A program made the position numbers and the translations under genes. DNA of 34,591 bases. Origin: Kiritimatiellia bacterium (GTDB taxonomy: Bacteria > Verrucomicrobiota > Kiritimatiellia > UBA8416). Where the stretch lies: positions 1 to 34,591 of the forward strand of contig SKVN01000098.1 in assembly GCA_007129405.1 (NCBI GenBank), given 5' to 3'. Within the stretch, counting starts at the first letter, position 1. Each line of letters opens with the position of its first letter. Under the pieces are notes generated by a model. It saw only the letters and a list, made by a program, of their open reading frames with translations, was not told the DNA's origin and searched no databases. Below, in pieces: positions 4,677 to 34,591 of this stretch.

Positions 4677-6017
4677 TTAGCGTCGGCCGTGTAATTCCGG
4701 GAAGGGGCTTAGGGCACGGTTGAGGATGCCAAGTGATTTGGCAATGGTGATGCCGTAGTTGGTGATGGGGACGCCGGCGGCTTCGCAACGTGTAATGCGC
4801 GTCAGGAGGTGGCGTCGGTTAAAGGTGCAGGACCCACAGTGGATGACGAGTTTGTAGGGAGAAACATCGTCGGGAAAGTCTGAACCTTGTACGTGATCGA
4901 TTTGCAGGGCGCCGCCTACGTATTGCGAAAGCCAACGCGGAATTTTGGTGCGGCCAATATCGTCGCCAATTTGATGATGGGTGCAGGCTTCGGCAATGAG
5001 AATGCGGTCACTGGGATGCAGTTGATCGATAGTTTCTGCTCCTTTGACAAACGTGGTGAGATCGCCTTTTAAACGGGCGAACAGAATCGAGAAGGATGTA
5101 AGCCGTACGTCGGGCGGCGTATCGGCATCGACTTTGAGAAAGGCTTGGGAATCGGTTACGACCAAAGCGGGAGGTTCGCGTAGTTTTTCGAGCAGTGCCC
5201 GGAGTTCGCGTTCTTTGGTAACTAGGGCACAAGCATCGTGATCGAGTAAATCGCGGATGGTTTGTACTTGCGGGAGGATGAGGCGTCCGCGTGGTGCCTC
5301 GAGGTCGATCGGTACGACGAGGACGACGAGCTCGCCGGGGCGTACAAGGTCCCCAGCAATGGCGGGCTGCTGTAAATATTCTTCCGGCAAGATGGGGATG
5401 AGGGCATCGCGGACGATGCGCCGGCATGCTTCGGGATCGTGTGCGGAGACGTGGATGGGTGGTTGATGGTTGGTGGTTGATCCTCCTTCGCTAAAGCTTC
5501 TGAGGACGAGTGGGTTGATGGGGGGTGTCGGGTGTCGGGTGTCGGGGGATATGGGAAGGTCTGTGGTCGTGCCCTGCGAAGCTGGAAGCGAAGCATGGGT
5601 CTGTAGTCTGTGGTCTGTGGTCTGTGGTCTGCAATCGGATTTGTTGAAGACGGCGAGGGTGGGAATGTTTCGTTGCAAGCATTCTGCGGCGAGCTTTTGC
5701 TCGAATTCGCCCCATGCTGCATCATAATCTGTGACAATGATGGCCAGATCGGTGCGATCGAGTATTTTTTGTGATTTTTTAATGCGTTGTTTTCCAAGTG
5801 CGCCGACATCGTCTAAACCAGCGGTATCGATAAAGAGTACGGGACCAATCGGCAGCAGTTCCATGGGCTTTTCGACGGGGTCGGTCGTCGTGCCGGGTGT
5901 GTCGGAAACAATGGCGGTTTGTTGCTGCGTGATGGCATTGATGAGCGATGATTTGCCGACATTGCGTCGTCCGAATATGCCAATGTGCAGGCGCAGTCCT
6001 TTGGGGGTGTTTTGCAT
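4677..6017 (-). CDS. hydF: [FeFe]-hydrogenase H-cluster maturation GTPase HydF, with an unusual internal low-complexity insertion
   Basis: GRRNVGKSS P-loop, DTPGTTTDPV, DTAGLDD, NKSD, C-terminal CTHHQ...HCGSC cluster-binding motif. Confidence 0.92.
   Translation of the reverse strand: MQNTPKGLRLHIGIFGRRNVGKSSLINAITQQQTAIVSDTPGTTTDPVEKPMELLPIGPVLFIDTAGLDDVGALGKQRIKKSQKILDRTDLAIIVTDYDAAWGEFEQKLAAECLQRNIPTLAVFNKSDCRPQTTDHRLQTHASLPASQGTTTDLPISPDTRHPTPPINPLVLRSFSEGGSTTNHQPPIHVSAHDPEACRRIVRDALIPILPEEYLQQPAIAGDLVRPGELVVLVVPIDLEAPRGRLILPQVQTIRDLLDHDACALVTKERELRALLEKLREPPALVVTDSQAFLKVDADTPPDVRLTSFSILFARLKGDLTTFVKGAETIDQLHPSDRILIAEACTHHQIGDDIGRTKIPRWLSQYVGGALQIDHVQGSDFPDDVSPYKLVIHCGSCTFNRRHLLTRITRCEAAGVPITNYGITIAKSLGILNRALSPFPELHGRR
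5454..5633 (+). repeat. Low-complexity / heptanucleotide repeat insertion within hydF (between G4 NKSD and G5 VSA)
   Basis: GGTGTCG x3 at 5524-5544; TCTGTAG + TCTGTGG x3 + TCTGCAA at 5600-5634; translates to CRPQTTDHRLQTHASLPASQ...PPIH with no resemblance to the GTPase fold. Confidence 0.85.
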
Positions 6018-6041
6018 AAAGGGAAGAGTAGGGGATGGGGA

Positions 6042-6072
6042 AAATGCTGAAAAGCTAAAATGCGGAAAAGCT
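6042..6072 (+). repeat. Short tandem repeat AAATGCKGAAAAGCT, two units with 16-nt period
   Basis: AAATGCTGAAAAGCT (6042) and AAATGCGGAAAAGCT (6058). Confidence 0.7.
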
Positions 6073-6194
6073 GAAAAAATGTGGGCAAGGGGAGGGATGC
6101 GACAGCCAGAGGCCGGAGGCTGATGGGCTTTGGGGGAGGGGAACCACAGACCACGCAGAATGACGCAGAAGGGGGAAGGATGGGGGGGAGGTTT

Positions 6195-6256
6195 TTGAAC
6201 TTCGAACGTTGAACTTCGAACGTTGAACGTTGAACTTCGAACTTCGAACGTTGAAC
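6195..6256 (+). repeat. Heptanucleotide tandem array built from two words, TTCGAAC and GTTGAAC
   Basis: Eight contiguous 7-mers from 6201 to 6256 preceded by a partial TTGAAC. Confidence 0.95.
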
Positions 6257-6304
6257 TTTTAAGGGGGAAGGGTGCGGGATGCGACAGCTAGAGGCCGCTT
6301 CGGC

Positions 6305-17018: not shown

Positions 17019-17150
17019 GATGATGCAGGCGCGAAACTATTTACACTTAATCGGAACCACTTGATCGTTTACACTTACTCGAAAGTCAGTGCTCATAATA
17101 TCGAGTAAGTGTAAGCGAGTAAGTGTTCAAACATTGAAGTTACAACCTAG
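17019..17150 (+). repeat. Composite repeat, 14-nt palindromic-array type (copy B)
   Basis: Head 17019-17039; direct units at 17043, 17057, 17071; inverted units at 17102, 17116; tail 17135-17150. Confidence 0.92.
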
Positions 17151-34468: not shown

Positions 34469-34591
34469 GATGATGCAGGGGAGAAACTTTATACACTTAC
34501 TCGCGCACACTTGATCGCTCACGCTTAATCGAAAGTCAGCGCACATGATGTCGAGTAAGTGTGCGCGAGTGAGTGTAGGCGAGTAAGTGTG
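34469..34591 (+). repeat. Composite repeat, 14-nt palindromic-array type (copy C, truncated by window end)
   Basis: Units at 34493, 34507, 34521 and inverted units at 34552, 34566, 34580; conserved loop AAAGTCAGCGCACATGATGT. Confidence 0.92.

What the first reader, a model, noticed from the sequence alone, without database searches (positions are those of the whole stretch)
5454..5633. Heptanucleotide repeats inserted inside the HydF GTPase domain
About 60 codons (CRPQTTDHRLQTHASLPASQ...SFSEGGSTTNHQPPIH) lie between the G4 motif NKSD and the G5 motif VSA. The DNA contains GGTGTCG x3 (5524-5544) and TCTGTRG x4 plus TCTGCAA (5600-5634), resembling the repetitive intergenic DNA just downstream of hydF rather than coding sequence. 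All three minus frames stay open in much of this stretch. Since 7 is not a multiple of 3, gain or loss of one unit would frameshift hydF, a possible phase-variable switch of [FeFe]-hydrogenase maturation. Phase variation is inference.
Basis: partly seen in the sequence, partly recalled or inferred. Interest (0 to 1): 0.7.

Follow-up and report, generated by a model that had tools for sequence, protein, structure and literature searches.

The report
Dispersed DNA repeats inside hydrogenase-maturase HydF
In this uncultivated bacterium, short repeats of the kind usually found between genes have replaced the DNA for one helix of an otherwise intact hydrogenase-assembly protein, in frame, and unrelated repeats sit at the same spot in several other lineages; this looks like a tolerated landing site for repeat DNA, not a genetic switch.

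Summary
hydF (4677-6017, minus, 446 aa) has 68 residues from NKSD (G4) to VSA (G5), where nearly all homologues have 28. The extra DNA is a mosaic of repeats found elsewhere in this genome: three heptanucleotide arrays (GGTCTGT, GGGTGTC, TGGTTGA-like) and two copies of a GAAGC-core motif. It replaces the codons of helix alpha-4, which AlphaFold predicts confidently in a sister HydF but as disorder here. The rest of the protein is well conserved; HydG and two [FeFe]-hydrogenases are encoded, and this is the only HydF found, so a tolerated in-frame change fits better than a dead gene. Phase variation is not supported: arrays are short and imperfect, and variation could not be tested. The same genome carries a GGGTGTC array inside a sulfatase. 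Across 198 HydF reading frames, every frame-breaking tandem array in the core lies in this G4-G5 segment (three genomes, different repeats), and a genus-specific palindrome sits there in a fourth lineage. So this segment appears to be a recurrent site where lineage-specific repeats enter a conserved GTPase. In-frame repeat insertion is known (Rickettsia RPE); frame-breaking heptads replacing a core helix, repeatedly at one site, are a new variant.

The parts
4677..6017 (-). hydF, [FeFe]-hydrogenase H-cluster maturation GTPase, 446 aa
   Evidence: TIGR03918 546.8 bits against cut-off 325.55; MMR_HSR1, HydF_dimer and HydF_tetramer in Pfam
5634..5645 (-). G4 motif NKSD, residues 125-128, one border of the insert
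   Evidence: alignment
5442..5450 (-). G5 motif VSA, residues 190-192, other border of the insert
   Evidence: alignment
5454..5633 (-). repeat-derived segment replacing helix alpha-4: about 60 codons in place of about 20
   Evidence: 68 aa against 28 aa in homologues; AF2 pLDDT below 50 at residues 134-160, against 92-94 in the native protein
5598..5631 (+). heptanucleotide array GGTCTGT, 4.9 units
   Evidence: TRF score 61; further copies on contigs C90, C105, C65, C133, C136, C29 and others
5558..5568 (+). detached unit and a half of the GGTCTGT array on the other side of motif B
   Evidence: sequence; D6
5569..5597 (+). dispersed GAAGC-core motif B
   Evidence: similar copies on C38, C101, C117, C52
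5523..5546 (+). heptanucleotide array GGGTGTC, 3.4 units
   Evidence: TRF score 48; exact copies on C103, C163, C194
5482..5508 (+). dispersed GAAGC-core motif A, an inverted relative of B; encodes LVLRSFSEGG
   Evidence: similar copies on C41, C120, C117, C154, C137; pairs with B when folded as one strand, not better than shuffles
5460..5481 (+). TGGTTGA-like heptanucleotide array, 3.1 units
   Evidence: TRF score 37
6041..6258 (.). intergenic repeats 5' of hydF: AAAATGCTGAAAAGCT x2, one GGTCTGT-type unit on the other strand (6143-6154), GAACTTC/GAACGTT heptads (6195-6258)

Best explanation
Dispersed, mostly intergenic small repeats of this genome (three heptanucleotide families and a GAAGC-core motif) entered hydF between the G4 and G5 motifs and replaced the codons of helix alpha-4. 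Only an outcome that kept the reading frame survived. [Shown by sequence comparison up to here.] The segment is translated into a Pro/Thr/Ser-rich, largely disordered loop of about 60 residues on the outer GTPase domain, while the nucleotide-binding motifs and the dimer and cluster-binding domains stay intact. [Predicted.] HydF therefore probably still works as H-cluster scaffold, and the insert is neutral or mildly disturbing. [Inferred.] The G4-G5 segment of HydF tolerates such DNA: other lineages carry their own different repeats there. The route of entry (stepwise slippage and repeat insertion, or capture of a spacer fragment) is not settled; stepwise growth is slightly favoured.
For: Length and position of the insert against about 198 HydFs. 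Each piece of the insert recurs elsewhere in the genome, mostly between genes; the GGTCTGT pattern occurs 14 times and its reversed control 0 times. Intact remainder: 2 deviations at 108 otherwise invariant columns, inside the range of other HydFs (0-3), and identities to outgroups like those of sister species. Sole HydF, with HydG (545 bits) and two [FeFe]-hydrogenases present. AF2: residues 134-160 below 50 here, against confident alpha-4 (133-141) and beta-6 in the G004 protein. Recurrence: GGGTGTC array in a sulfatase, about 20 aa extra; CCGCACT x5.3 in HydF of G304 and the same heptad as a clean 10-aa insert in its carboxynorspermidine-decarboxylase-like protein; a 10-mer array in G303; a 9-mer in L069 and in a f31/f44 clade; a TTTTTCCAGGCCTTGGAAAA palindrome in genus g27, with 111-1135 copies per genome and one exactly inside hydF of G077. 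All frame-breaking arrays of 3 or more units in 198 HydF cores lie in this segment. The GTPase domain is the outermost, least ordered part of the HydF dimer (PMC6212873).
Against: No expression or activity data. alpha-4 is normally a core helix of G domains, so its loss could weaken the protein. The GTPase motifs are reported essential for maturation (PMC6212873). MAG sequence only, 76% complete. The hot-spot statistic is post hoc, rests on three genomes (two of one genus) and uses a non-random sample.
Confidence: 0.8

Rival explanations
1. Phase-variable switch: gain or loss of one 7-bp unit by slippage frameshifts hydF and turns [FeFe]-hydrogenase maturation on and off.
For: 7 is not a multiple of 3; a change of one or two units truncates HydF to 170-269 aa and three units restore it. 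Heptamer tracts mediate phase variation in Haemophilus (PMC2651432).
Against: Arrays of 3-5 imperfect units, against about 13-38 in most reported switching tracts. Mid-gene position. The same repeats are scattered over the genome, mostly between genes, with no sign of a link to surface or contingency genes.
Confidence: 0.05
2. Decaying gene: the insertion destroyed the GTPase domain and hydF is a young pseudogene or a hypomorph.
For: The insert replaces a core helix predicted confidently in the sister protein.
Against: Full-length frame over 446 codons after a 120-nt net change, all metal ligands and G motifs kept, no excess of changes at invariant sites, HydG and two hydrogenases still present, no second HydF.
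Confidence: 0.12
3. Assembly artefact: repeats joined wrongly in a metagenome bin.
For: The source is a fragmented draft of 203 contigs, probably a MAG, and repeats can break assemblies.
Against: Both sides of the insert are the two halves of one hydF in frame and order. The arrays (at most 36 bp) are far shorter than a read. Independent genomes show the same kind of insertion at the same place.
Confidence: 0.03

Closest known systems
Rickettsia palindromic elements (RPE) and other in-frame MITE insertions
   Same: Small dispersed repeats translated in frame inside conserved housekeeping proteins, with function apparently kept; an RPE-bearing guanylate kinase is still active (PMC2229807).
   Different: RPEs are single 105-146 bp palindromic elements. 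Here the insert is a mosaic of heptad arrays plus a short motif, its unit is not a multiple of 3, and it replaces a helix.
Heptanucleotide repeats: STRR of cyanobacteria, GGGNATC of Xanthomonas/Nostoc, TAACTGA of Beggiatoaceae
   Same: 7-bp units, few copies per array (often about four), dispersed, mostly intergenic; STRR also enter the RNase P RNA gene (title cited in PMC2858038).
   Different: [quoted passage not shown] Here the array is in the middle of a conserved enzyme; unit sequences differ.
Borg amino-acid tandem repeats
   Same: Tandem repeats in ORFs create intrinsically disordered regions (PMC9879509).
   Different: All in-ORF Borg units are divisible by three; these are 7 nt and their unit number is not visibly under selection.
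Phase-variable simple sequence repeats
   Same: Frame-breaking unit inside a coding sequence.
   Different: Low, imperfect copy number, housekeeping gene, no variation shown.

Membership tests
HydF (TIGR03918) | score above the curated cut-off with GTPase, dimer and tetramer domains | tested here: met
   546.8 against 325.55 bits; three Pfam domains
HydF (TIGR03918) | conserved Cys/His ligands of the cluster domain and GTPase motifs | tested here: met
   C345, H347, C394, C397 and most G-motif residues invariant or nearly so with 50 homologues
HydF (TIGR03918) | intact helix alpha-4 between G4 and G5 | tested here: not met
   usual but not universal, since some other HydFs also lack the standard segment
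In-frame dispersed-repeat insertion (RPE-like) | the inserted DNA occurs at other places of the same genome | tested here: met
In-frame dispersed-repeat insertion (RPE-like) | absent from orthologues of close relatives and reading frame kept | tested here: met
   G003, G004; open frame
In-frame dispersed-repeat insertion (RPE-like) | one palindromic element with terminal inverted repeats | tested here: not met
   mosaic of arrays; motifs A and B fold no better than shuffles
Phase-variable SSR locus | unit number varies within a population | not testable with these tools
   no reads, no conspecific genome
Phase-variable SSR locus | long uninterrupted tract | tested here: not met
   3-5 units with mismatches
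Intergenic heptanucleotide repeats (STRR-like) | 7-bp units, dispersed, mostly intergenic | tested here: met

The most novel reading that the evidence does not exclude
The G4-G5 (alpha-4) segment of HydF is a preferred landing site where lineage-specific non-coding repeats, frame-breaking heptads included, repeatedly replace a helix of a conserved GTPase; possibly they also retune its GTP switch.
Probability: 0.45. Interest if true: 0.65.

Novelty: new variant of a known kind. Interest (0 to 1): 0.5.

Why it matters
It shows repeat DNA that does not respect codons becoming protein in a conserved enzyme, and it gives natural variants that test whether helix alpha-4 of the HydF GTPase domain is needed for hydrogenase maturation. 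It also warns that repeat tracts in conserved genes of uncultivated bacteria need not be phase switches.

Tried and rejected
Phase variation: weighed and downgraded (copy number, position, dispersal). Conserved insertion domain: rejected, private to this genome. Chance repeats: rejected by codon shuffles. Hairpin/REP structure of motifs A and B: not better than shuffled DNA, so I call them dispersed motifs, not palindromes. ORF picking by length alone misled in GC-rich G304 (it chose the antisense frame of hydF), so only cases checked by homology (NspC-like, HydF, sulfatase) are used; one search was made with the same ORF picking and its intergenic calls are therefore approximate. A literature search for repeats in Kiritimatiellae gave nothing specific.

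Full report
What is there. The window gene at 4677-6017 (minus) is hydF: TIGR03918 546.8 bits, with GTPase, dimer and tetramer domains. Between the G4 motif NKSD (5634-5645) and the G5 motif VSA (5442-5450) it carries about 60 residues not seen in relatives. NKSD to VSA is 68 aa here and 28 aa in nearly all of about 100 HydFs, including the same-family genomes G003 and G004. Measured from G4 to the conserved GDLV, it is 101 aa here against a mode of 60 among about 198 sequences, the longest of all. The native alpha-4 sequence is not recognisable, so this is a replacement with a net gain of 120 nt.

The DNA of the insert. TRF reports three period-7 arrays: TGGTTGA-like 5460-5481, GGGTGTC 5523-5546 and GGTCTGT 5598-5631. 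Codon-order shuffles of hydF never give a period-7 array of score 37 or more in 1000 trials. Between the arrays lie two copies, in opposite orientation, of a motif with GAAGC cores. BLAST against the own genome finds most pieces elsewhere. The GGTCTGT pattern is found 14 times with up to 2 mismatches, its reversed control 0 times, and it occurs patchily in 15 of 57 related genomes. By ORF inspection most other copies in this genome are intergenic or at gene ends.

Is the gene alive? HydG (545 bits) and two [FeFe]-hydrogenases are encoded, and no other HydF is found. The window protein departs from 2 of 108 columns invariant in the other 50 sequences; single homologues depart from 0-3. Its identity to outgroups is close to that of its sisters. 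AlphaFold gives pLDDT below 50 for residues 134-160 and block means of 43-58 over 131-180, but high confidence for most of the rest. The G004 protein shows alpha-4 (133-141) and beta-6 at pLDDT about 92-94. Structure search returns HydF 5KH0, 3QQ5 and 5LAD first. The tolerant reading fits the literature: the GTPase domain is outermost and least ordered in crystals, its motifs are needed for maturation, but GTPase activity is not needed for cluster transfer (PMC6212873).

A wider pattern. The same genome has a GGGTGTC array inside a sulfatase, giving about 20 residues absent from the two nearest relatives found (Pfam sulfatase). In genome G304, HydF has CCGCACT x5.3 at the same G4-G5 place. That heptad pattern is found 16 times in G304 and in none of nine other genomes tested, and it also forms a clean 10-residue insert in a carboxynorspermidine-decarboxylase-like protein whose nine orthologues lack it. 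G303, of the same genus, has a different 10-bp array there. L069 (Sumerlaeota) and a clade of families f31/f44 have 9-bp repeats. In genus g27 a palindrome present 111-1135 times per genome, and absent from the other genera tested, lies in the same segment, with further growth in G036. Among 198 HydF reading frames all five tandem arrays that break frame, with at least 3 units and score 37 or more inside the conserved core, fall in this 29-residue segment (three genomes; about 4e-4 if independent, post hoc). Other heptads lie upstream of the start or in the C-terminal tail.

How it most likely works. Shown: the insert consists of dispersed repeats, is private to this genome among those compared, and the frame is kept. 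Predicted: a disordered loop replaces alpha-4. Inferred: HydF keeps its scaffold role. Motif B splits the GGTCTGT array, and G036 shows stepwise growth at this site, so stepwise accumulation is slightly favoured over capture of one spacer fragment. Phase variation needs unit-number variation, which could not be tested; the short, imperfect arrays make it unlikely.

Known relatives. In-frame insertion of small dispersed repeats is known from Rickettsia RPE (PMC2229807), heptameric repeats from Xanthomonas/Nostoc (PMC4692102) and Beggiatoaceae (PMC4679880), and disorder from tandem repeats in Borgs, whose in-ORF units are all multiples of three (PMC9879509). What is new here is the frame-breaking unit, the mosaic, the replaced helix and the recurrence at one site of one enzyme.

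Noticed in passing
143-243, 17040-17081, 34493-34591: 14-bp tandem arrays (ACACTTAATCGCGC/CGATTAAGTGTAAA types) near both contig ends and mid-contig; the contig ends inside one, so dispersed repeats may limit this assembly.
   Followed up: no
L149 609-2204 (G000 contig C194): Sulfatase with an in-frame GGGTGTC-derived insert SCLVTGDGEQVSGVGCREGSAQ.
   Followed up: partly
L301 518-1735 (G304 contig C159): Carboxynorspermidine-decarboxylase-like gene with a 10-aa heptad insert GVRSAECGVG absent from nine orthologues.
   Followed up: yes
L296 804-2252 and L304 703-2103 (G304): Prepilin-like ORFs preceded in frame by long repeat-derived leaders (HPSLPRRGYINSVGQRPT repeats); probably read-through of upstream repeats.
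   Followed up: no
genomes G036, G077, G078, G079: TTTTTCCAGGCCTTGGAAAA palindrome at 111-1135 copies per genome, absent from other genera tested.
   Followed up: partly
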